DNA from: Allofustis seminis DSM 15817
Lineage (GTDB): Bacteria > Bacillota > Bacilli > Lactobacillales > Carnobacteriaceae_A
NCBI RefSeq assembly: GCF_000374325.1
Contig: NZ_KB894081.1
Location: forward strand, 1 to 64,000
Direction of reading: 5' to 3'
DNA: 64,000 nt
The translations under genes were made by a program, and so were the position numbers. Position 1 is the first letter of the stretch, and the number at the start of each line of letters is the position of its first letter. The notes beneath the pieces were generated by a model. That model did no database searches. It had not been told where the DNA came from and was given only the letters and a program-made list of their open reading frames with translations. Shown piece after piece: positions 1,583 through 25,808 of the stretch.

Positions 1583-1874
1583 CGTGGTCAATGATATGCG
1601 ATGTCTTGCTGACAGCATACAGGCAGTTTGCGATGCGATGACAGAAGGAGATCCTGCTCCAGGTGCAAAAGCTACAACTGAACAAGAACCAGTAAAAGAG
1701 CCGGATATCCCACTGGAAAAAGTGCGTATGGTACTTGCTGAGAAGAGCCAGATTGGGTTTACTGCCGAAGTGCGAGGACTCATTCAAAAGTATGGTGCAG
1801 ACAAGTTAAGTGCTGTTGATAAGACTTATTATGCTGACATCTTGAAAGATGCGGAGGGTCTTGGAAATGGGTAA
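1557..1874 (+). CDS. Conserved early phage protein
   Basis: A 105-residue protein of unknown function. An upstream ATG at 1530 exists, but AAAGGAGG (1541-1548) points to the TTG at 1557, which I take as the start. The C-terminal part, with GFTAEVRGLIQKYGADKLS and a VD..YY.D.LKD pattern, is shared with the protein at 20094, so it is the conserved core; the N-terminal half differs. It sits between the first early gene and the DUF2800 gene in both elements. Confidence 0.75.
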   Translation: MSKIKLLLDVVNDMRCLADSIQAVCDAMTEGDPAPGAKATTEQEPVKEPDIPLEKVRMVLAEKSQIGFTAEVRGLIQKYGADKLSAVDKTYYADILKDAEGLGNG

Positions 1875-3003
1875 TCATGCAATATTATCTGCATCTTCAT
1901 CCCACAGGTGGCTCAACTGCCTACCCTCTGCAAGACTTGAACAGGAGTTTGAAGACCAAAGTGGTGAGGCAGCCAAAGAAGGTACAGCGGCTCATGACCT
2001 GTGTGAACACAAACTGAAAAAGGCACTCCATATAAGGAGTAAGCGCCCTATATCAAAATATGACTCAGATGAGATGGAAGAATGCACAGATGACTATGTT
2101 GCCTTCATCATGGAGCAGGTGGAACTTGCGAGAAAGTCTTGCACAGATCCTATCGTTCTTATTGAACAACGTCTTGACTTCTCTTGTTATGTTCCAGATG
2201 GTTTTGGGACAGGAGACTGTGTAATCATTTCAGATGACAGACTTCACATCGTAGACTTTAAATATGGGCTGGGTGTGCTAGTCGATGCCGTGGACAATCC
2301 ACAGATGAAACTGTATGCCATAGGAGCACTTGGAATCTATGATCACCTGTACGACATTAAAGAAGTGTCCATGACGATCTTTCAGCCTAGAAGAGAGAAT
2401 GTCAGCACCTGGACAATACCGGTGGAAGAACTAAAAGGCTGGGCGGAAGAGGAACTAAAGCCTAGGGCGGTCAAGGCCTTCAACGGTGAGGGTGAATACA
2501 TCCCCGGTCCATGGTGTACCTTCTGTAAAGCGGCAAACAGATGTCGGGCCAGAGCCGAAGAAAAGCTAAAACTTGCAGAGAAAGAATTCAAGATGCCACC
2601 TCTGCTGACGGATGCTGAGATAGAAGAAATCTTACTTATTCTTCCCGACCTTACCAAGTGGGCGAATGAAATAACAGCCTATGCCACTGATGCAGCAGTC
2701 AATCACGGTAAAGAGTGGAACGGTTTTAAAGTTGTGGAAGGTCGCTCGGTTCGCAAGTACAAAGATGAAGGAGCCATTGCAGAAAAAGCCGTGGCAGGTG
2801 GATATAAGGACATTTACAGAAAGAGCCTTATTCCGCTGACAGAGATGCAAAAACTGATGGGTAAATCTAAGTTTGAGGAACTCCTCGGTGACCTCATTTA
2901 CAAACCACCGGGTAAGCCGACTCTTGTTCCAAACTCAGATAAAAGACCGGCAATGAACGTAGCAGATGCTAAAAACGAATTTAACGAAATTATGGAGGAT
3001 TAA
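1867..3003 (+). CDS. DUF2800 protein, PD-(D/E)xK nuclease-like
   Basis: A 378-residue protein of the DUF2800 family, usual in phages of this type and related in fold to Cas4/RecB nucleases. Visible features are the N-terminal LSASSSHRWLNC, the putative catalytic region GTGDCVI then LHIVDFKYG (Asp plus DFK, about residues 115-135), a QMKLYAIG segment, and a C-terminal cysteine cluster WCTFCKAANRC (about residues 217-227) like the iron-sulfur cluster ligands of Cas4/AddB. I chose ATG 1867 (MGNHAIL) over 1849 because CGGAGG precedes it and the homologue at 20375 starts equivalently. A role in replication or recombination is likely but inferred. Confidence 0.85.
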   Translation: MGNHAILSASSSHRWLNCLPSARLEQEFEDQSGEAAKEGTAAHDLCEHKLKKALHIRSKRPISKYDSDEMEECTDDYVAFIMEQVELARKSCTDPIVLIEQRLDFSCYVPDGFGTGDCVIISDDRLHIVDFKYGLGVLVDAVDNPQMKLYAIGALGIYDHLYDIKEVSMTIFQPRRENVSTWTIPVEELKGWAEEELKPRAVKAFNGEGEYIPGPWCTFCKAANRCRARAEEKLKLAEKEFKMPPLLTDAEIEEILLILPDLTKWANEITAYATDAAVNHGKEWNGFKVVEGRSVRKYKDEGAIAEKAVAGGYKDIYRKSLIPLTEMQKLMGKSKFEELLGDLIYKPPGKPTLVPNSDKRPAMNVADAKNEFNEIMED

Positions 3004-3008
3004 ATATT

Positions 3009-3560
3009 ATGGCAAATATGCAAAACAAAACAAAAGTTATCACAGGTGTAAACTCAAGATTTTCTTACTTCCACGGATGGGAGCCTGTATCTATTAATGG
3101 TGGTGCAGAAAAGTACAGCGTATCCGTCCTTATTCCAAAGGATGACAAGGAAACCATTAATGCCATCCATGCAGCAGTTGATGCTGCCATTGAGGAAGGT
3201 ATCGCAAAGTTTGGTGGTAAGAAACCAAATAAGGCAGCCATTAAACTACCGCTGCGTGATGGTGATGTAGAGCGTGATGATGAGGCTTATAAAGGCCATT
3301 ACTTCATCAATGCGAATAGCAAGACAGCGCCACAGATTGTAGACAAAAGTGTTAAGCCGATACTGGATCGTAGCGAGGTATACAGCGGTTGTTATGGCAG
3401 GGTTTCTCTTAACTTCTATGCTTTCAACTCAAATGGTAATAAAGGTGTAGCTTGTGGCCTTGGTAACATTCAAAAAATTAGAGACGGAGAACCTCTAGGT
3501 GGTAAGTCTTCTGCAATAGATGATTTTACGACTCTTGTCGATGATGACTTCCTTGCCTAA
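3009..3560 (+). CDS. DUF2815 family protein, probable phage ssDNA-binding protein
   Basis: A 183-residue DUF2815 protein. Family members sit between the DUF2800 and DNA polymerase genes and are thought to bind single-stranded DNA; that role is family knowledge, not visible here. The C-terminus ends in an acidic tail (DDFTTLVDDDFLA), as in many ssDNA-binding proteins. It is five bases after the DUF2800 stop and is clearly homologous to the gene at 21495 (shared RSEVYSG.YxRVSLNFYAFN). Confidence 0.8.
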   Translation: MANMQNKTKVITGVNSRFSYFHGWEPVSINGGAEKYSVSVLIPKDDKETINAIHAAVDAAIEEGIAKFGGKKPNKAAIKLPLRDGDVERDDEAYKGHYFINANSKTAPQIVDKSVKPILDRSEVYSGCYGRVSLNFYAFNSNGNKGVACGLGNIQKIRDGEPLGGKSSAIDDFTTLVDDDFLA

Positions 3561-3579
3561 TAGAAACAATAAACTTGAC

Positions 3580-3628
3580 GGTGGTGGAGGTCTTCCCTCT
3601 GCCACCTTTTTTCATTTAGGAAAGGTGG
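3580..3628 (+). promoter_or_regulatory. Terminator overlapping a ribosome-site hairpin before polymerase gene
   Basis: GGTGGTGGAGG (3580-3590) pairs with CCTCTGCCACC up to 3606, followed by six T: a terminator. The right arm CCACCTTT (3602-3609) is also complementary to AAAGGTGG (3621-3628), the ribosome site of the polymerase gene. The two folds exclude each other, which suggests attenuation or translational control; regulation is inferred. Confidence 0.6.
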
Positions 3629-3633
3629 TAGCT

Positions 3634-5574
3634 ATGAAAAACTTAGAAATTGATATCGAAACCTATTCATCTACCAATCTACAAAAGAGTGGTGTTTATC
3701 GTTATGTAGAAGCAGAGGACTTTGAGGTGATGCTGTTTGGTTATGCGGTTGATGGTGGTGAAGTTAAGGTCGTTGATTTGATGGATGGAGAAAAGATTCC
3801 AAAAGAAATCCTAGATGCTTTAACCGATGAAACCATTACGAAATGGGCATTTAATGCTCAGTTTGAGCGGGTATGCCTTTCACGTTATTTGGGCTACCCC
3901 ACGGGGACTTATCTAAACCCTTCCTCATGGAAATGCTCCATGGTTTGGTCTGCCTATATGGGTTTACCACTTTCTTTAGAAGGTGTAGGTGCAGTGCTGG
4001 GACTTGAAAAGCAAAAGCTGACGGAGGGCAAGGACTTGATACGATATTTTTGTCTTCCATGTGCTCCAACAAAAATAAATGGTAGTAGAACCCGTAACCT
4101 ACCCACTGATGAAATCGATAAGTGGCAGAAGTTCAAAGCATATAACAAGCGTGATGTGGAGGCAGAAATACAGATACAACAAAGATTGATCAAGTTTCCA
4201 GTACCAGAGGACATCTGGGATGAGTATCATCTCGACCAAGAAATCAACGATCGAGGCATAAAGGTGGATATGGATTTTGTTAAGCAGGCCATTGCCATGG
4301 ATGACATATCTCATGAAAAACTACTAACTGCCATGCAGCAGATAACAAATCTCGATAACCCAAACTCTGTACAACAGATGAAAAGCTGGCTTTGTGAAAA
4401 TGGTCTAGAGATGGAGACTCTCGGTAAAAAAGCTGTCGCTGAGAAACTTAAGGAAACCGATGGTGAACTAAAAGAAGTTCTTTCGCTACGTCAGCAACTG
4501 GCAAAATCCTCGGTAAAGAAATATACAGCAATGGAAAATGCGGTCTGTAGTGATTCTCGTGCCAGAGGTATGTTTCAGTTTTATGGAGCCAACAGAACCG
4601 GACGCTTTGCCGGAAGGCTTGTGCAATTGCAAAACCTCCCTCAAAACCATATGCCAGACTTAAAAGAGGCACGAAACATTATCAGAAATGGTGATGTTGA
4701 AACACTAGAACTGCTCTATGAAGATATACCCGATACCCTTTCACAACTGATTCGTACAGCCTTTGTACCAAGAGTTGGTCATAAGTTTATTGTTGCTGAC
4801 TTCTCAGCCATTGAAGCTCGTGTGCTTTCATGGCTTGCAGGCGAAACATGGCGAACAAAGGTATTTGCCAGTGGGGGTGATATCTACTGTGCATCTGCCT
4901 CCCAGATGTTTAAGGTCCCCGTTGAAAAGCATGGTGTGAACGGTCACTTGAGACAGAAGGGTAAAATCGCTGAATTGGCACTGGGTTATGGTGGTTCTGT
5001 TGGTGCGCTAAAAGCCATGGGTGCATTAGAGATGGGGCTTGAAGAGGAAGAGTTAAAACCGCTTGTGAATGCCTGGAGAATGTCTAATCCCAACATCACA
5101 CAGTTCTGGTGGGATGTAGATCGGGCGGCTAAACAATGCGTGAAGGAAAACAAATCACAAGAAACCCATGGCATCGAGTTTCATTGTTTTAGTGGCATGC
5201 TTTTTATCGTTCTTCCCTCCGGCAGAAGGCTTGCCTATGTAAAACCTCGAATTGGTGAGAATCAGTTTGGTGGTGAGTCTGTGACCTATGAAGGGGTAGG
5301 TGGAACAAAGAAATGGGAGCGTCTTGAAAGTTACGGTCCTAAGTTTGTAGAGAATATTGTTCAAGCCATCTCCCGTGATATTTTGATGTATTCAATGAAG
5401 ATGCTTAGTACTTATCGTATTGTGGCTCATGTCCATGATGAAGTCATTATTGAAGCGAATCCTCAAATATCTGTTACTGAAGTATGTAAACAGATGAGTC
5501 AAGTGCCACCTTGGGCAAAAGGGCTGCTTCTTGACGCCGATGGCTATGAATGTGAATTTTATCAAAAAGATTAA
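3634..5574 (+). CDS. Family-A DNA polymerase (phage type)
   Basis: A 646-residue polymerase I-like enzyme. The N-terminal 3'-5' exonuclease domain begins with IDIETYSS (D7, E9). The polymerase domain shows motif A ADFSAIEARVLSWLAG (near residue 389), motif B RQKGKIAELALGYGG (near 440) and motif C HVHDEV (near 600), all intact, so it should be active in element DNA replication. I chose ATG 3634 because of the AAAGGTGG upstream and the matching start of the homologue at 22178. Unlike that homologue it has no intein: ELA is followed directly by LGYGG. It is the last gene of the element 1 replication module; the genes that normally follow are missing. Confidence 0.93.
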   Translation: MKNLEIDIETYSSTNLQKSGVYRYVEAEDFEVMLFGYAVDGGEVKVVDLMDGEKIPKEILDALTDETITKWAFNAQFERVCLSRYLGYPTGTYLNPSSWKCSMVWSAYMGLPLSLEGVGAVLGLEKQKLTEGKDLIRYFCLPCAPTKINGSRTRNLPTDEIDKWQKFKAYNKRDVEAEIQIQQRLIKFPVPEDIWDEYHLDQEINDRGIKVDMDFVKQAIAMDDISHEKLLTAMQQITNLDNPNSVQQMKSWLCENGLEMETLGKKAVAEKLKETDGELKEVLSLRQQLAKSSVKKYTAMENAVCSDSRARGMFQFYGANRTGRFAGRLVQLQNLPQNHMPDLKEARNIIRNGDVETLELLYEDIPDTLSQLIRTAFVPRVGHKFIVADFSAIEARVLSWLAGETWRTKVFASGGDIYCASASQMFKVPVEKHGVNGHLRQKGKIAELALGYGGSVGALKAMGALEMGLEEEELKPLVNAWRMSNPNITQFWWDVDRAAKQCVKENKSQETHGIEFHCFSGMLFIVLPSGRRLAYVKPRIGENQFGGESVTYEGVGGTKKWERLESYGPKFVENIVQAISRDILMYSMKMLSTYRIVAHVHDEVIIEANPQISVTEVCKQMSQVPPWAKGLLLDADGYECEFYQKD

Positions 5575-20093: not shown

Positions 20094-20378
20094 ATGGCAA
20101 GAATGAAAAGACTAAAAGAAATACACGAGAGCTTAGTAGAGATAACAGAGGATTTGGCAACGCTACTATATAGCGATGGCCAAGAAGTGACAGAAAAGAC
20201 AGAAAAGAAAGTAAGTATTGAGATTGAAGAGGTAAGACACACTCTGGCTAATAAGTCGAGAGCTGGCTTTACAGAGGATATAAAAGCCCTGCTTAAAAAG
20301 TATGGCTCAGACAAGCTATCTCAGGTTGACCCAAAAGACTATGAGAGTCTCTTAAAAGATGTGGAGGCACTGAAATGA
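20094..20378 (+). CDS. Conserved early phage protein
   Basis: A 94-residue protein of unknown function. The C-terminal half (GFTEDIKALLKKYGSDKLS, VDPKDYESLLKDVEAL) matches the protein at 1557. ATG 20094 follows AAAGGAAGG; the GTG at 20085 lies inside the preceding gene. The stop overlaps the next start (ATGA). Confidence 0.75.
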   Translation: MARMKRLKEIHESLVEITEDLATLLYSDGQEVTEKTEKKVSIEIEEVRHTLANKSRAGFTEDIKALLKKYGSDKLSQVDPKDYESLLKDVEALK

Positions 20379-21493
20379 GCCATGCCCTATTATCCCCATC
20401 CTCATCTGAGAGATGGATTAATTCACCAGCTAGTGTCAAGTATCAAATCCTCTTTCAAGAGGAGCGTTCACCTTATGCACAGGAAGGATCGGAGGCTCAC
20501 TTATATGCAGAGCACCTCCTTAAAAAGAATCTAGGAATGAAAACCAGAAATCCTAAAAACAAGCTGGAGTTTTACTCTAAGGAAATGGAAGAGTGTGCAG
20601 AAGGCTATGTGGTCTATATTAATGAAATCATGGCAAGTCTTACTAAGCCAAAAGTATATGTAGAAGAAAAGCTTAATTTGTCCATGTATATCCCAGAAGC
20701 CTATGGAACAGCCGATGCCATTATTGCAGGTGGTGAGGAACTTCACATCGTAGATTTCAAATATGGCTTAGGTATCCAAGTTGATGCTAGAAACAATAGT
20801 CAACTGATGATTTATGCCCTAGGTGCCTTATATCTCTTTGATGGGATTTACGACTTTACTAAGGTCACCATGCATATCTACCAGCCAAGACGTACCAATA
20901 TCTCATCTTTTTCAATGACTCCTAAAGACTTATACAAGTGGGCTGAAGAGGTGTTAAAGCCTAAAGCTTTAGAGGCCATCAATGGTCAAGGTGAATTTAA
21001 AGATGGCCCATGGATGAGATTTTGGCCAGCAAAAAGTCGAGGAAGAAGAAGGGCTGAGTATGTACTGGAATGCTTAAAGTATGACTTTAAGAAACCAGAA
21101 CTACTGATGGATTCAGAAATTGAGGACATCCTAGCTATCATTCCAAGTCTTGAGTCTTGGATAGTAGACGTTAAAGAATACGCCTTAGAAGAGGCCCAGC
21201 TAGGAAAAACATGGCAGAACTTCAAACTCGTTGAAGGCAGGTCAACACGTAAATACGGCGATGAAGAAAAGATTGTAGAAACCGTTAAGAAACTGGGCTA
21301 TGACCCTTATGAGAAAAAACTTCTTGGTATTACCAAGATGACAAAACTCCTAGGCAAGGAAGAATTTGACAAACACCTATCGCCCTATATTAGTAAACCA
21401 CAGGGCAAACCAATCCTTGTACCAAGGTCAGATAGTCGTCCAGAAATTGCAAATGCAAAAGATGAATTTTCAAAGATAGAAGGAGAAGAATAA
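20375..21493 (+). CDS. DUF2800 protein without the cysteine cluster
   Basis: A 372-residue homologue of the protein at 1867, with the same opening (LSPSSSERW) and nuclease-like core (GTADAIIAGGEELHIVDFKYG). Where the element 1 copy has WCTFCKAANRC, this copy reads WMRFWPAKSRG, so all three cysteines are replaced. The rest of the region is well conserved. If the cysteines hold an iron-sulfur cluster in the family, this copy cannot. ATG 20375 overlaps the previous stop. Confidence 0.85.
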   Translation: MSHALLSPSSSERWINSPASVKYQILFQEERSPYAQEGSEAHLYAEHLLKKNLGMKTRNPKNKLEFYSKEMEECAEGYVVYINEIMASLTKPKVYVEEKLNLSMYIPEAYGTADAIIAGGEELHIVDFKYGLGIQVDARNNSQLMIYALGALYLFDGIYDFTKVTMHIYQPRRTNISSFSMTPKDLYKWAEEVLKPKALEAINGQGEFKDGPWMRFWPAKSRGRRRAEYVLECLKYDFKKPELLMDSEIEDILAIIPSLESWIVDVKEYALEEAQLGKTWQNFKLVEGRSTRKYGDEEKIVETVKKLGYDPYEKKLLGITKMTKLLGKEEFDKHLSPYISKPQGKPILVPRSDSRPEIANAKDEFSKIEGEE

Positions 21494-21494
21494 A

Positions 21495-22049
21495 ATGACA
21501 AATTTAAATCAAACAAAAGTAACAACAGGAAAAGTAAGACTTAGCTATGCCAATGTATGGGAGCCAAAATCAATTAATGGTGGCAAGGAAAAGTACTCTT
21601 GTTCCATCATCATTCCAAAAACTGATACGAGAACCATTGAAAAAATCGAGCGAGCCATTAAAGCTGCAATTGAAAGAGACTTAGGTAAATTTGGTGGGAA
21701 AATGCCAAACATGAATGCAATTAAACTGCCCCTTCGTGACGGCGATATTGAGAAAGATGACGGGGCTTACAGGGATGCCTACTTTGTTAATGCCAATTCC
21801 TTAACAGCACCTCAAATCGTGGATAGAAATGTCGAGCCAATTATCGATAGAAGTGAAGTTTACTCAGGTGTCTATGCTCGTGTGAGCTTAAACTTTTACG
21901 CCTTTAACGTCAATGGGAACAGGGGAGTTGCCTGTGGACTTGGGAACATTCAAAAGCTTTCTGATGGTGATCCACTCGGTGGACGTTTTAATGCAAGTGA
22001 TGACTTTGATATTTACGGCGATGATGACGAAGAAGACTTTTTATCTTAG
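21495..22049 (+). CDS. DUF2815 family protein, probable phage ssDNA-binding protein
   Basis: A 184-residue homologue of the protein at 3009, with shared NVWEPKSINGGKEKYS-type and RSEVYSGVYARVSLNFYAFN segments. It ends in an acidic tail (YGDDDEEDFLS), typical of ssDNA-binding proteins that recruit partners. It follows the DUF2800 gene by one base. The ssDNA-binding role comes from the family context. Confidence 0.8.
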   Translation: MTNLNQTKVTTGKVRLSYANVWEPKSINGGKEKYSCSIIIPKTDTRTIEKIERAIKAAIERDLGKFGGKMPNMNAIKLPLRDGDIEKDDGAYRDAYFVNANSLTAPQIVDRNVEPIIDRSEVYSGVYARVSLNFYAFNVNGNRGVACGLGNIQKLSDGDPLGGRFNASDDFDIYGDDDEEDFLS

Positions 22050-22059
22050 GAGGTAAATC

Positions 22060-22212
22060 ATGAAAACTATTATTTCCATTCTACTTCTGATTATTTTATC
22101 TCAAATTATCTTCTTTCTAATCCAAGCAAACATCGATGCGATTACAGAAAGAAGATATAGGAGAGAGGATAGGGAAAATGAAAAACTTGATGATGGACAT
22201 CGAGACCTATAG
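22060..22212 (+). CDS. Small single-span membrane protein
   Basis: A 50-residue protein starting at ATG 22060 after TAGGAGG. Residues 4-23 form one hydrophobic segment (IISILLLIILSQIIFFLI), followed by a highly charged tail (ITERRYRRED). It overlaps the first 35 bases of the polymerase gene in another frame, so translation may be coupled. No equivalent lies before the element 1 polymerase. Function unknown. Confidence 0.65.
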   Translation: MKTIISILLLIILSQIIFFLIQANIDAITERRYRREDRENEKLDDGHRDL

Positions 22213-25033
22213 CTCAAGAGACTTAAGAAAATCAGGTGTGTATAAGTATGCCGAGAGTGAGGATTTTGAGATCCTCCTCTTTGCATACGCTATCGATGAT
22301 GAAGATATACAAGTGATTGATTTAGCTAATGGTGAAGAAATCCCAGAAGAAATCTTACATGCTTTAGAAGATGACAAAGTGGAGAAGTGGGCTTTTAATG
22401 CAAACTTTGAACGAGTTTGTCTGTCTAGGTATTTAGGAAGAAGGCTAAATCCAAAGTCCTGGTATTGTTCGATGGTTTGGTCTGCTTACTTAGGTCTTCC
22501 TTTATCTCTTGAAAAGGTAGCAGAGGTATTAAGATTTGATACAAAGAAAATGTCGGAAGGAAGAAGTCTCATTCGCACCTTTTCTATTCCCGTTACTCCA
22601 ACTAAGTCAAATGGTTACAAAAGCAGATTAACCAAAGCTGATGAGCCAGAAAAGTGGGAGCTTTTTAAGGAATATAACAAGAGGGATGTGGAAGTAGAAA
22701 GAGCCATCAATAAAAAATTATCAGCCTTTCCTATACCAGATTTTGAATGGGAGAACTATCATATCGACCAAGTGATTAATGACCGTGGTATCTGTGTAGA
22801 TTTAGACCTTGTAAAGGGTGCTGTAGATATTGATGAAAAGCTCTATGAGAAAAATATGAAAAGAGCAATGGATTTAACAGGACTAGAAAATCCGAACTCA
22901 CCTTTACAGCTACGTGAATGGTTAAAAAAAGAGGGACTAGAAATGGACTCTCTTGCTAAGAAGGAAGTGGATAAAGCCATCAAAGAGTCAACGGGTAAGG
23001 TTCGAGAGGCCCTTTTATTAAGAAGACAGCTTTCTAAGTCTTCTATTAGAAAGTTTAATGCCATAGAAAATGTAGCAACGAAGGATAAAAAGGTAAGAGG
23101 GCTCATCCAGTTTTATGGAGCAAATAGGACAGGACGCTATGCAGGAAGACTTATCCAGGTGCAAAACCTAAGAAGAAACAATCTTGATGATTTAGAGCTT
23201 GCAAGATCTATCGTAAAAGATGGTGACTACGAACTATTGAGTCTTTTATATGATTCACCTGCTGATGTCTTATCACAGCTTATTCGTACAGCTTTTGTTC
23301 CAAGTAAAGGTCGAGTTTTAGTGGTTTCAGACTTCACAGCTATCGAAGCAAGGGTGTTAGCATGGCTCTCTGGCGAGACTTGGAGGATGGATGCATTTAA
23401 TAGAGGGGTCGATATTTACTGTGAGTCAGCCTCTCAGATGTTTAGTGTACCAGTAGAAAAGCATGGTATTAATGGTCATCTTAGACAAAAAGGAAAAATA
23501 GCTGAGCTTGCCTGTATTGCAGAAGGTGAACTAGTCCTAACAAATCGAGGCCTTGTTCCTATTGAAGAAGTTAAGCTATATCACAAATTATGGGATGGAA
23601 ATTCATGGGTGACCCACGAAGGGGTCGTTTATAAAGGAATAAGAGAGGTGATTGAATATGAAGGACTCAGAGCAACAAAAGATCACCTCGTATGGATTGA
23701 GGGGCAACAGAGGCCGATACACTTTGGACAAGCCTCCAATAGCGGAGCACATCTCTTACAAACAGGAGATGGTAGGAGAGAGATACGGCTGGGTGAAAAT
23801 TATAAGCCCAGAAAAAAGATGGTCAAAAAATTGGAACAGCTGTTACGTACTCACTCAATGTCAAGGATGTGGAAGTGTTCAATGGCAAGACAGAGGAAAT
23901 CTAACATCAGGTCAGTCAATGGGGTGTCAGTCATGCTCTCAACCAAGACAAATACCAAAGTGGCTAAATCGGCGATTAACAGCAGCAAAGCAAAGATGCG
24001 AAAACAAGAAGGACCCGCAGTACAAGAATTATGGGCAAAGAGGAATAAAATTCAAATTCAAAAGCATTCTAGAAGCGGGCCTGTATTTAATAGAAAAATA
24101 TGGGATACCCTCAAGAAAATTAGAAATAGACAGAATAGACAACAATGGGCACTACCAAAAGGGAAATATTCGATTTGTAGATCATTCAAAAAACAACTCA
24201 AACAAAAGGTCTACAGTACTGACGGAATTTCATCAAAAGTATTGGCCTTATGCGAGAAGTGTGGTTATAAGAAAACTATCTCAAGGCCTATCAAGAAAAG
24301 AAGTCATCCAGGATGCCAGAACTGCTGTAGAGGAAAAAAGGAAAAACTGGCGATTGATAGAGGCAAGGCTAGAGTTTATGACATACGAAATGCCGGACCA
24401 CATCATCGTTTTACCGTATCAGGAAAACTAGTCCATAACTGTGGCTATCAAGGCTCTGTCGGGGCACTTAAGGCCATGGGAGGACTTGAGATGGGTCTTT
24501 CAGAAGATGAGCTTCAGTCCGTCGTAGATTCTTGGAGAGAGGCTAATCCCAATATTGTAAACCTTTGGTATGAAATCGACCGAATCGTTAAATCAGTGAT
24601 TAAGTCTAGAGGAAGAGAAAGATACAAAAATCTTTTATTTTCTATGGAAAAAGGGATTCTCTTTATTACACTCCCATCGAAAAGAAGACTTGCCTATATG
24701 AGGCCAGGGATTGGTATGAATCGTTTTGGTGGCGAGTCCATCACTTATGAGTTTACTTCTACAGGAGGCAAGTGGGAAAGACAAGAATCCTATGGTGGGA
24801 AATTTGTAGAGAATATCGTTCAGGCCATAGCTAGAGATATTTTAGCAAGTAGCCTTAAGCGTTTAAATAAAAAATACGAAATTGTCATGCACGTTCATGA
24901 TGAGGTGGTGATTGATGGCTACCCAAAGGATCTAGAAGACATCAATAAGATTATGTGCCAAAACCCCTCATGGGCTAAGGGACTGGTCCTTGATGCTGAG
25001 GGCTTTGTCTGTGATTTTTATAGAAAGGATTAG
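22178..25033 (+). CDS. Family-A DNA polymerase interrupted by an intein
   Basis: A 951-residue precursor; without the intein (residues 446-754) the polymerase is 642 residues, close to the 646 of its element 1 homologue. Exonuclease start MDIETYSS, motif A SDFTAIEARVLAWLSG (near 384), motif B RQKGKIAELA then, after the intein, CGYQGSVGALKAMG, and motif C HVHDEV (near 906). The intein splits motif B, so the polymerase is inactive until splicing. I chose ATG 22178 (MKNLMMDIE) by alignment with the element 1 copy. The residue after the intein is cysteine, where the homologue has leucine. Confidence 0.93.
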   Translation: MKNLMMDIETYSSRDLRKSGVYKYAESEDFEILLFAYAIDDEDIQVIDLANGEEIPEEILHALEDDKVEKWAFNANFERVCLSRYLGRRLNPKSWYCSMVWSAYLGLPLSLEKVAEVLRFDTKKMSEGRSLIRTFSIPVTPTKSNGYKSRLTKADEPEKWELFKEYNKRDVEVERAINKKLSAFPIPDFEWENYHIDQVINDRGICVDLDLVKGAVDIDEKLYEKNMKRAMDLTGLENPNSPLQLREWLKKEGLEMDSLAKKEVDKAIKESTGKVREALLLRRQLSKSSIRKFNAIENVATKDKKVRGLIQFYGANRTGRYAGRLIQVQNLRRNNLDDLELARSIVKDGDYELLSLLYDSPADVLSQLIRTAFVPSKGRVLVVSDFTAIEARVLAWLSGETWRMDAFNRGVDIYCESASQMFSVPVEKHGINGHLRQKGKIAELACIAEGELVLTNRGLVPIEEVKLYHKLWDGNSWVTHEGVVYKGIREVIEYEGLRATKDHLVWIEGQQRPIHFGQASNSGAHLLQTGDGRREIRLGENYKPRKKMVKKLEQLLRTHSMSRMWKCSMARQRKSNIRSVNGVSVMLSTKTNTKVAKSAINSSKAKMRKQEGPAVQELWAKRNKIQIQKHSRSGPVFNRKIWDTLKKIRNRQNRQQWALPKGKYSICRSFKKQLKQKVYSTDGISSKVLALCEKCGYKKTISRPIKKRSHPGCQNCCRGKKEKLAIDRGKARVYDIRNAGPHHRFTVSGKLVHNCGYQGSVGALKAMGGLEMGLSEDELQSVVDSWREANPNIVNLWYEIDRIVKSVIKSRGRERYKNLLFSMEKGILFITLPSKRRLAYMRPGIGMNRFGGESITYEFTSTGGKWERQESYGGKFVENIVQAIARDILASSLKRLNKKYEIVMHVHDEVVIDGYPKDLEDINKIMCQNPSWAKGLVLDAEGFVCDFYRKD
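23513..24439 (+). other. Intein in the DNA polymerase (309 residues)
   Basis: The intein begins with cysteine (CIAEGELVLTNRGLVPIEEV, block A), has block B as GLRATKDHLVW, and ends with block F VYDIRNAGPHHRFTVSG and block G KLVHN followed by cysteine. All standard splice residues (C1, T..H in block B, terminal HN, +1 C) are present, so it should splice. The roughly 230 residues between blocks B and F are rich in K, R, S and Q and look like an out-of-frame translation: they are the shadow of a second gene (23658) in the +1 frame. No endonuclease domain is visible in the intein frame itself. Confidence 0.92.
23658..24431 (+). CDS. Homing-endonuclease-like protein nested in the intein, +1 frame
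   Basis: A 257-residue protein encoded wholly inside the intein in the +1 frame relative to the polymerase. It has its own ribosome site (GAGAGGTG, 23643-23650) seven bases before ATG 23658; a TTG at 23652 is less likely. The N-terminal part carries a zinc-ribbon-like CQGCG ... GCQSC region, the middle has KQRCENKKDPQYKNYGQRGI, and about residues 153-170 read EIDRIDNNGHYQKGNIRFV, the signature of phage HNH-like/EDxHD homing endonucleases. The stop TAG 24429-24431 falls within the codons for the last intein residues, so intein blocks B, F and G are dual coding. It presumably cuts inteinless polymerase genes. Confidence 0.88.
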   Translation: MKDSEQQKITSYGLRGNRGRYTLDKPPIAEHISYKQEMVGERYGWVKIISPEKRWSKNWNSCYVLTQCQGCGSVQWQDRGNLTSGQSMGCQSCSQPRQIPKWLNRRLTAAKQRCENKKDPQYKNYGQRGIKFKFKSILEAGLYLIEKYGIPSRKLEIDRIDNNGHYQKGNIRFVDHSKNNSNKRSTVLTEFHQKYWPYARSVVIRKLSQGLSRKEVIQDARTAVEEKRKNWRLIEARLEFMTYEMPDHIIVLPYQEN

Positions 25034-25037
25034 AATA

Positions 25038-25808
25038 ATGAATTTAGAAATATATAAACATGAAGAATTTGAAGATATAAGAACAATGCTTATAGATAAT
25101 GAGCCATGGTTTGTAGGAAAAGATATCGCTCAGAACTTGGGATATAGCAATACACGAAAAGCGATCCTTGATCACGTTGATAAAGAAGACAAAAAAGATG
25201 GGGTAACGATTCGTGACTCCATGGGAAGAAAGCAAACGCCAATATTTATCAACGAATCAGGTCTCTATAGCCTTATCTTATCCAGTAAGCTTCCCTCAGC
25301 GAAAAAGTTTAAAAGATGGGTGACTAGTGAAGTCCTACCTTCTATTCGAAAAAGAGGGCTTTATGCTACTGATGAGATACTAAATAACCCTGATTTAATG
25401 ATTGCAGTCCTTGAAGAATTAAAGAAGGAAAGAGAAGAAAAGGCCATATTAAAACAACAGAACTTAGAGCTTAAACCCAAAGCCTCATATTACGATGTGG
25501 TTTTAAACTGCAAGGAGGCAGTCGCCATTTCTGTGATTGCTAAAGATTATGGTTGGTCTGCTAGAAGAATGAATAAACTTCTTCATAATTTAGGCGTTCA
25601 ATACAAACAGGGAAGAATCTGGCTTTTATATCAAGACTATGCAGCAGAAGGTTATACCTGCACGAAGACTCATGCCTATCCAAAAGGAAATGGAGAGATG
25701 GGTTCTAAAGTTCATACCTATTGGACTCAAAAGGGTAGACTATTTATCTATGACCTACTTAAAAGTGAAGGCTATGTTCCTCTTATTGAAAAGAAAGAGG
25801 TAGCCTAA
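25038..25808 (+). CDS. Phage antirepressor, Bro-N plus ANT domains
   Basis: A 256-residue antirepressor. Residues 1-110 form a Bro-N domain (WFVGKDIAQNLGYSN, ESGLYSLILSSKLPSAKKFK) and residues 145-250 a KilA-C/ANT-type domain (SVIAKDYGWSARRMNKLLH, YWTQKGRLFIYDLLK). I chose ATG 25038, because the longer start lies inside the polymerase gene. Such proteins inactivate a prophage repressor. No obvious CI-type repressor gene is present in element 2 itself, which is unusual. Confidence 0.85.
   Translation: MNLEIYKHEEFEDIRTMLIDNEPWFVGKDIAQNLGYSNTRKAILDHVDKEDKKDGVTIRDSMGRKQTPIFINESGLYSLILSSKLPSAKKFKRWVTSEVLPSIRKRGLYATDEILNNPDLMIAVLEELKKEREEKAILKQQNLELKPKASYYDVVLNCKEAVAISVIAKDYGWSARRMNKLLHNLGVQYKQGRIWLLYQDYAAEGYTCTKTHAYPKGNGEMGSKVHTYWTQKGRLFIYDLLKSEGYVPLIEKKEVA

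What the first reader, a model, noticed from the sequence alone, without database searches (positions are those of the whole stretch)
23513..24439. Polymerase intein with a homing endonuclease nested in the +1 reading frame
The intein frame carries intact splicing blocks A, B, F and G, but the sequence between B and F is a low-complexity K/R/S/Q translation. In the +1 frame the same DNA encodes a 257-residue protein with its own ribosome site and the IDRIDNNGHY...GN.RFV signature of phage homing endonucleases. Its ATG lies just before the block B codons and its stop lies four codons before the intein end, so essential splicing blocks are dual coding. Ordinary inteins carry the endonuclease in frame as part of the intein. 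Here the nuclease is freed from the splicing protein while both frames stay open for about 770 bases, which implies selection on two frames.
Basis: partly seen in the sequence, partly recalled or inferred. Interest (0 to 1): 0.95.

Follow-up and report, generated by a model that had tools for sequence, protein, structure and literature searches.

The report
Nuclease gene hidden inside an intein
A phage DNA polymerase gene carries a self-splicing protein insert (an intein), and the same DNA read one base later encodes a separate DNA-cutting enzyme that probably spreads the insert; related phages keep both readings open, so one stretch of DNA appears to make two proteins.

Summary
A polA-type gene (22178-25033) contains a 309-codon intein (23513-24439), and a 257-aa HNH-family nuclease is encoded in its +1 frame (23658-24431). 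I held 101 full-length loci of this layout (four are copies of the window's own). Of 95 aligned without gaps, 93 keep the intein frame open, 93 the nuclease frame and 91 both; the third frame has 8-27 stops. In 47 non-redundant elements, shuffling the nuclease's synonymous codons predicts 406 intein-frame stops; none is seen. dN/dS on 20 disjoint pairs gives three zones: both frames are under purifying selection at the splicing blocks (0.31/0.32 and 0.45/0.19, intein/nuclease); in the middle only the nuclease is (0.09), the intein frame drifting as an open spacer (1.03). A ribosome site and start codon are kept inside the intein. Five distinct loci lost the nuclease core and keep mini-inteins of 124-168 aa. 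Other polymerase inteins hold HNH genes in the +2 frame or at another site, so the layout probably arose at least twice. Closest in print: the ShiLan element (2025), without splicing domains. A 2025 preprint and a 1998 paper on non-canonical inteins could not be read. No activity was tested.

The parts
22178..25033 (+). Phage family A DNA polymerase gene (951 aa with the intein), interrupted at its KIAELA/CGY motif
   Evidence: PF00476 2e-18; phrog_17 7.5e-133 and phrog_10285 1.4e-109
23513..24439 (+). Intein, 309 codons, Cys1 to Asn309, followed by Cys +1
   Evidence: Blocks read directly; a fixed 927-base slice around the nuclease begins with Cys in 93 of 95 loci and ends in His-Asn in 95 of 95; model of residues 1-85 and 276-309 matches solved inteins, 4kl5 first, prob 1.00, E 1.4e-3
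23513..23767 (+). N-terminal splicing half, intein residues 1-85 (blocks A and B)
   Evidence: pLDDT about 90; C1, T55, H58 invariant in 44 sequences
24338..24439 (+). C-terminal splicing half, intein residues 276-309 (blocks F and G)
   Evidence: pLDDT about 90; Y289, D290, H308, N309 invariant in 44 sequences
23795..24337 (+). Intein-frame spacer, residues 95-275: unconserved, must only stay open
   Evidence: dN/dS 1.03 (0.88-1.26); pLDDT under 50 for 94-275; largely absent from five distinct natural mini-inteins
23658..24431 (+). HNH-family nuclease gene nested in the +1 frame (257 aa plus stop TAG)
   Evidence: phrog_374 HNH endonuclease 1.2e-23; dN/dS 0.09 (0.07-0.12) in the spacer zone
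23643..23652 (+). Shine-Dalgarno-like GAGAGGTGAT before ATG 23658
   Evidence: Sequence; intein Glu45, inside this site, is GAG in 38 of 45 elements against 59 of 228 other Glu codons of residues 1-48, Fisher p 1.7e-13
23859..23936 (+). Cys pairs of the nuclease (C68, C71, C90, C93), zinc-ribbon-like
   Evidence: C68, C90 and C93 invariant and C71 nearly so in 45 sequences; zinc binding is inferred
24123..24179 (+). Nuclease core signature EIDRIDNNGHYQKGNIRFV (residues 156-174)
   Evidence: E156, D158, R159, Y166, N170 invariant in 45 sequences
3634..5571 (+). Related polymerase without the intein in the same window: an empty-site allele, with Leu where the intein allele has Cys +1; insertion point after base 4980
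   Evidence: 59% and 57% identity on the two sides; flanks aligned

Best explanation
This is a mobile intein whose homing nuclease is carried in an overlapping frame, not inside the splicing protein. Shown from sequence: one reading gives polymerase N-part, splicing domain (residues 1 to about 93 and about 276-309) joined by an open, unselected spacer, then polymerase C-part. The same DNA one base later encodes a full HNH-family protein that starts at an internal ATG with a ribosome site, keeps its core and Cys residues, and overlaps splicing block B at its start and F and part of G at its end. Inferred: ribosomes on the polymerase mRNA make the precursor, which splices itself to active polymerase; others start at ATG 23658 and make the nuclease; the nuclease cuts polymerase genes that lack the intein, and repair copies in intein, nuclease and the Cys +1 codon together. 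When the nuclease is lost, the intein shrinks to a mini-intein. Origin (inferred): a phage HNH gene entered a mini-intein out of frame and took its start and end from intein DNA; this probably happened at least twice in polymerase inteins.
For: Both frames open in 91 of 95 ungapped loci, third frame with 8-27 stops. 0 intein-frame stops against 405.6 expected, and 0 nuclease-frame stops against 168.0, in 47 elements. dN/dS by zone on 20 disjoint pairs. Start site kept: ATG in 91 of 95; of nine loci without it (four ungapped, five gapped), eight have an in-frame ATG 12 or 39-42 bases upstream behind a purine-rich site, L116 being the ninth; SD codon bias p 1.7e-13. Intein half-models match solved inteins, and the intein profile aligns with two other polymerase intein groups. 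Nuclease matches phage HNH endonuclease families. Natural mini-inteins of 168, 155, 137, 135 and 124 aa. Mobility, indirect: 78 of 78 recognised empty alleles have Leu at +1, 52 of 53 recognised intein alleles have Cys and one is unreadable; in 263 of 741 pairs the nuclease is more similar than the exteins by over 0.10. Two further groups with out-of-frame HNH genes in polymerase inteins.
Against: No activity was measured. The nuclease model has no significant Foldseek match (best E 0.54); PacI at Z 5.5 over 73 residues is only suggestive. The intein model's best Foldseek E is 1.4e-3, none at or under 1e-3. Pfam does not call the window nuclease or any of 44 inteins; NCBIfam's intein N-terminal model matches 11 of 44, best 0.0088, and not the window's. 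Per-element SD energy reaches P under 0.05 in only 4 of 47 (median 0.22), though the mean is better than random. The nuclease is on average more conserved than the exteins (0.65 against 0.57) and the two correlate (Spearman 0.41), so part of the extein excess may be rate, not transfer. Stop avoidance in the +2 group is weak one by one (P 0.0025-0.33). L030 and L061 have a stop in the nuclease frame.
Confidence: 0.87

Rival explanations
1. The insert is a ShiLan-like out-of-frame HNH gene that stays in the polymerase; the intein-like blocks do not splice.
For: Out-of-frame HNH insertions without splicing domains are in print (PMC11855218; abstract, passages and sections read), and library intein models are weak here: TIGR01445 matches 11 of 44 members at best 0.0088, Pfam none.
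Against: C1, block B T/H, H308, N309 and Cys +1 are kept; both halves model as a known intein fold; mini-inteins keep just these parts; the site lies inside a polymerase motif shared by empty alleles.
Confidence: 0.05
2. The nuclease is not started separately but is reached by a programmed frameshift from the polymerase/intein frame, giving an N-extein/N-intein/nuclease fusion.
For: Same mRNA, frames overlap around block B, and phages use frameshifts elsewhere (general knowledge). No slippery site was searched for.
Against: Conserved ATG in 91 of 95 with a ribosome site favoured against local codon preference; in eight of nine loci that lack this ATG another lies upstream behind a purine-rich site; a stop codon lies three codons before the window ATG.
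Confidence: 0.06
3. Only one frame is real and the other is a fossil or a by-product of codon bias.
For: The spacer of the intein frame shows no amino-acid constraint.
Against: Permuting each frame's codons predicts many stops in the other, and none is seen in 47 elements; both frames are under purifying selection at both ends.
Confidence: 0.02

Closest known systems
ShiLan element and Pacc40 gp60 insertion (Arsenault, Gosselin, Gogarten 2025, PMC11855218)
   Same: HNH gene out of frame in an insertion that leaves the host ORF open; phage-borne; homing-like distribution as the authors describe it. My tree places the Pacc40 HNH next to group C (97/82).
   Different: By the paper those insertions have no splicing domains, and it reports no detectable ribosome site near the HNH; here intein splicing blocks and a ribosome site are present and the two frames share the splicing blocks.
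Canonical bifunctional inteins with an in-frame homing endonuclease (recalled; PI-SceI type)
   Same: Splicing domain in two halves around a homing nuclease; conserved insertion motif; nuclease loss gives mini-inteins.
   Different: The nuclease is not part of the splicing polypeptide; it is read from another frame and start site.
Split-intein fractured genes with a free homing endonuclease gene between the halves (recalled, Dassa et al. 2009, not read)
   Same: Nuclease encoded separately from the splicing protein.
   Different: Here the host gene is continuous and the intein is cis-splicing in layout; the nuclease overlaps it instead of lying between split halves.
Free-standing phage HNH endonucleases (phrog_374, phrog_3377)
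   Same: Same protein family, E 1.2e-23 and 5e-18.
   Different: The two ends of the protein are encoded by intein DNA in another frame.
Gosselin, Arsenault, Gogarten 2025 preprint 10.1101/2025.01.02.630785, and Gorbalenya 1998 Non-canonical inteins (seen in a reference list only; look-ups failed)
   Same: Titles concern non-canonical inteins, and PMC11855218 cites both for overlapping reading frames in actinobacteriophages; they may describe this arrangement.
   Different: Unknown, not read.

Membership tests
Intein (Hint-fold protein splicing element) | Nucleophile at residue 1, block B T..H, C-terminal HN, nucleophile at +1 | tested here: met
   C1 in 93 of 95, HN in 95 of 95; T55 and H58 invariant in 44; Cys +1 in 52 of 53, one unreadable
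Intein (Hint-fold protein splicing element) | Hint fold | tested here: met
   The 50 Foldseek rows shown are inteins or intein-like domains, top eight with prob 1.00, E 1.4e-3 to 1e-2; a predicted model, and no E at or under 1e-3
Intein (Hint-fold protein splicing element) | In-frame insertion at a conserved site, with empty alleles | tested here: met
   Empty alleles, including one in the window
Intein (Hint-fold protein splicing element) | Splicing activity | not testable with these tools
   Needs expression
Canonical bifunctional intein | Endonuclease domain in the intein's own frame | tested here: not met
   Intein-frame residues 94-275 are largely unconserved, pLDDT under 50, and no nuclease family matches that frame; the HNH lies in +1
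Phage HNH endonuclease family | Sequence membership | tested here: met
   phrog_374 1.2e-23, phrog_3377 5e-18; Pfam HNH_3 in only 6 of 45, best 0.0026
Phage HNH endonuclease family | HNH (beta-beta-alpha metal) fold | tested here: inconclusive
   PacI Z 5.5, rmsd 2.9, 73 residues; Foldseek best E 0.54, not an HNH enzyme
Phage HNH endonuclease family | Site-specific cutting of the empty allele | not testable with these tools
   Needs protein
ShiLan-type insertion | Out-of-frame HNH with the host frame open | tested here: met
ShiLan-type insertion | No splicing domains in the host frame | tested here: not met
   Splicing blocks and intein fold are present
Group I or II intron | Recognisable intron RNA | tested here: not met
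   No Rfam match at E up to 1 in 22000-25400, and the host frame runs through

The most novel reading that the evidence does not exclude
Out-of-frame inteins are a recurrent class of mobile element. Phage polymerase inteins acquired a homing nuclease in an overlapping frame at least twice (groups A/B and C), and within A/B one inherited intein-nuclease pair switched the nuclease between the +1 and the +2 frame while both proteins stayed functional.
Probability: 0.5. Interest if true: 0.88.

Novelty: new variant of a known kind. Interest (0 to 1): 0.8.

Why it matters
It separates the two jobs of an intein, splicing and homing, into two proteins made from one stretch of DNA, so each can be expressed and lost on its own terms. 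It gives a clean natural test of overlapping-gene evolution, with zones where both frames are selected and one where only one is. It also shows that nucleases can hide in phage genes annotated simply as DNA polymerase, and it raises a testable question: how often do inteins judged to lack an endonuclease carry one in another frame?

Tried and rejected
Intron: no Rfam match. Chance ORF: rejected by permutation and conservation. One-frame-only reading: rejected by zone-wise dN/dS. An earlier run with other zone limits on 20 pairs that share loci gave 0.95 (intein) and 0.07 (nuclease) in the middle, 0.29 and 0.19 in the N zone, and in the C zone 0.77 (CI 0.36-1.62) for the intein frame and 0.16 for the nuclease. 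PDB sequence search: nothing for the nuclease, one weak intein hit, 4kl6, E 0.33. Foldseek with the nuclease: no HNH enzyme among the 50 rows shown. Plasmids: one weak hit. Own family: 2 of 27 genomes match, the window's and G025 (E 1.1e-11), whose match is a 175-aa ORF of its own. SS3e and SE2 were not used in frame tests because their polymerase is split in the records. Of 16 loci only L092 is a close +2 relative; 13 of the other 15 have no containing ORF in another frame and two were not matched. Literature: nine searches (listings capped, only 25 of 74, 20 of 77 and 25 of 79 papers shown) showed only PMC11855218 and the announcement PMC12613952 (listing and start of abstract only) on out-of-frame HNH genes. 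PMC11855218 is the only paper I opened: abstract, passages, part 1 of 6 of the text, sections 17-19.

Rows left out: of 101 full-length loci, 5 with gaps and 1 with a short flank are not among the 95. The 95 include four copies of the window locus and other close copies, hence 50 representatives; L049, L116 and L061 were left out of the 47 used for permutation and dN/dS. The extein comparison used 39 of 50 representatives. L088 and L090 (apparent nuclease loss) and L135 and L136 could not be measured as inteins. The tree used 18 HNH proteins taken as free-standing; L105, L107, L229 and L231 among them were not checked for a containing frame, and denser sampling could separate groups A and B.
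Full report
Anatomy. The polymerase ORF of the window (22178-25033, 951 aa) is interrupted in its KIAELA/CGY motif by a 309-codon intein (23513-24439). In the +1 frame, ATG 23658 to TAG 24429-24431 encodes 257 aa. The protein matches phage HNH endonucleases (phrog_374, 1.2e-23; phrog_3377, 5e-18); it matches no Pfam family on its own. A GAGAGGTGAT site precedes the ATG.

Relatives. One genome scan and three viral-contig scans, with phage records, gave 101 full-length loci with this layout, four of them copies of the window locus. They lie in phages or genomes whose records name Peptoniphilus, Anaerococcus, Streptococcus, Gardnerella, Lachnospiraceae, Ruminococcus, Selenomonas, Allobaculum, Spirochaetaceae, Synergistaceae and others. 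Of 95 aligned without gaps, 93 keep the polymerase frame open over the intein, 93 the nuclease frame through codon 242, and 91 both; the third frame has 8-27 stops; a fixed 927-base slice starts with Cys in 93 and ends in His-Asn in 95. The four exceptions: L049 differs from its near relative by one base of length upstream of the nuclease start, L116 has different DNA in the 5' part, and L030 and L061 have a stop inside the nuclease. A few others (for example L051, L121, L123, L125, L132) end the nuclease at codon 243-249.

Selection. The 95 fall into 50 groups at 95% identity; 47 were tested. Permuting synonymous codons of the nuclease (codons 51-218) predicts 405.6 stops in the intein frame against 0 seen; the reverse predicts 168.0 against 0. 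On 20 disjoint pairs, dN/dS intein/nuclease is 0.31 (0.16-0.53)/0.32 (0.17-0.56) over intein residues 49-85, 1.03 (0.88-1.26)/0.09 (0.07-0.12) over 95-275, and 0.45 (0.21-0.83)/0.19 (0.08-0.38) over 276-305. So both proteins are selected where they share splicing blocks, and the middle of the intein frame is only kept open. The method is a simple counting one without codon-bias correction; an earlier run with other zone limits left the intein frame of the C zone undecided (0.77, 0.36-1.62).

Initiation. The nuclease starts with ATG at the same codon in 91 of 95. Nine loci lack it: L020, L077, L122, L124 and L126 have an in-frame ATG 12 bases upstream behind AAAGGAG; L045, L109 and L078 have ATGs 39-42 bases upstream behind a GGAGAGGAG-like stretch; L116 differs there. 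The Glu45 codon inside the ribosome site is GAG in 38 of 45 against 59 of 228 for other Glu codons of residues 1-48 (p 1.7e-13); relatedness of the sequences is not corrected for. The per-element hybridisation test is weaker: mean -9.6 against -7.5 kcal/mol, P under 0.05 in 4 of 47.

Structure. With 44 sequences, the intein model is confident at 1-85 and 276-309 and under 50 at 94-275; the 50 Foldseek rows shown are inteins or intein-like domains, NpuDnaE first (E 1.4e-3). The nuclease model has mean pLDDT 80.5, with residues 1-16 and 254-257 low; Foldseek finds nothing significant, and the second look puts PacI, an HNH enzyme, first at Z 5.5 over 73 residues, a level that can be chance.

Loss of the nuclease. 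Five distinct loci (S. porci, held three times as L023, L028 and L091; L085; L086; L087; L089) lack the HNH core but keep recognisable nuclease ends and inteins of 168, 155, 137, 135 and 124 aa with blocks A, B, F and G in frame. L133 and L134 have a shortened 263-aa intein and a truncated nuclease.

Mobility (indirect). The window carries an intein-free polymerase at 3634-5571, 59% and 57% identical on the two sides, with Leu at the position that is Cys in the intein allele. Of 226 loci then held, 133 showed a junction that my pattern recognised: 78 empty, all with Leu, 53 with this intein, 52 of them with Cys and one unreadable, and two with group B inteins. The loci were fetched as relatives of the empty gene and capped at 80, so this is no frequency. 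Nuclease identity averages 0.65 and extein identity 0.57 over 741 pairs, Spearman 0.41; in 263 pairs the nuclease leads by over 0.10, while in the eight pairs printed at the other end it trails by 0.08-0.10. L046 stands out: exteins 0.36-0.46, nuclease 0.62-0.74 in its 13 printed pairs, which suggests transfer between distant polymerases.

Other cases. Group B: Vibrio phage 97.13, Pseudomonas MR14, L092, EBPR siphovirus 2, and Salmonella and E. coli phages have an HNH ORF in the +2 frame of a polymerase intein of 285-299 codons, at the same motif or a few residues upstream. In all ten loci tested no stop interrupts the polymerase frame in the middle, though single tests give P 0.0025-0.33 and six of the ten are near copies. 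The Ent3 record annotates this intein as encoding splicing domains only. Group C: Shewanella phage SFCi1 and APSE-7 have an HNH ORF in +1 of an intein at another polymerase region. The intein profiles of B and C match that of A at 99.7-99.8% probability. In a tree of 47 HNH proteins, A and B are sisters (99/96) and C lies elsewhere, beside the Pacc40 HNH (97/82). Hence most simply at least two origins; and either a frame switch between A and B or two entries by close relatives. Sampling of free-standing HNH proteins was sparse (18).

Comparison. The ShiLan paper (PMC11855218; parts read) describes out-of-frame HNH genes in phage methylases without splicing domains and without a detectable ribosome site. 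Nine searches of the held library showed, among the rows listed, no paper on an intein with its nuclease in another frame. The preprint 10.1101/2025.01.02.630785 and Gorbalenya 1998, cited there, were not readable and may bear on priority.

Verdict. A real dual-coding element, most likely a mobile intein with its nuclease out of frame; new variant of a known kind on what I could read. Splicing, translation of the nuclease and cleavage are inferred.

Noticed in passing
1849-5574 and 20375-25033: Two similar gene runs (two upstream ORFs of like size, then a family A polymerase) lie about 19 kb apart in the window; one polymerase has the intein, the other does not. The IMG/VR contig that gave L002 and L146 holds both.
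   Followed up: partly
L051 and L086: One Pelotomaculum MAG (SL1-B34.2) holds both a full-length element and a nuclease-deleted 137-aa mini-intein, on two contigs.
   Followed up: no
L009 and L010: A single 214-kb viral contig carries two copies of the element about 67 kb apart, 3% divergent over the overlap.
   Followed up: no
L116:3452-5331: The 5' part of the polymerase/intein differs from all relatives and the nuclease-frame ORF runs for 439 codons, so the nuclease frame is intact where the polymerase frame is not.
   Followed up: partly
L226:4673-5624: The Ent3 helicase gene is annotated with a LAGLIDADG-type intein near the polymerase intein, so one phage region holds an in-frame and an out-of-frame type.
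   Followed up: no
L141 and L144: In the SS3e and SE2 records the polymerase is annotated as separate ORFs around the HNH region; whether real or a sequencing matter was not tested.
   Followed up: no
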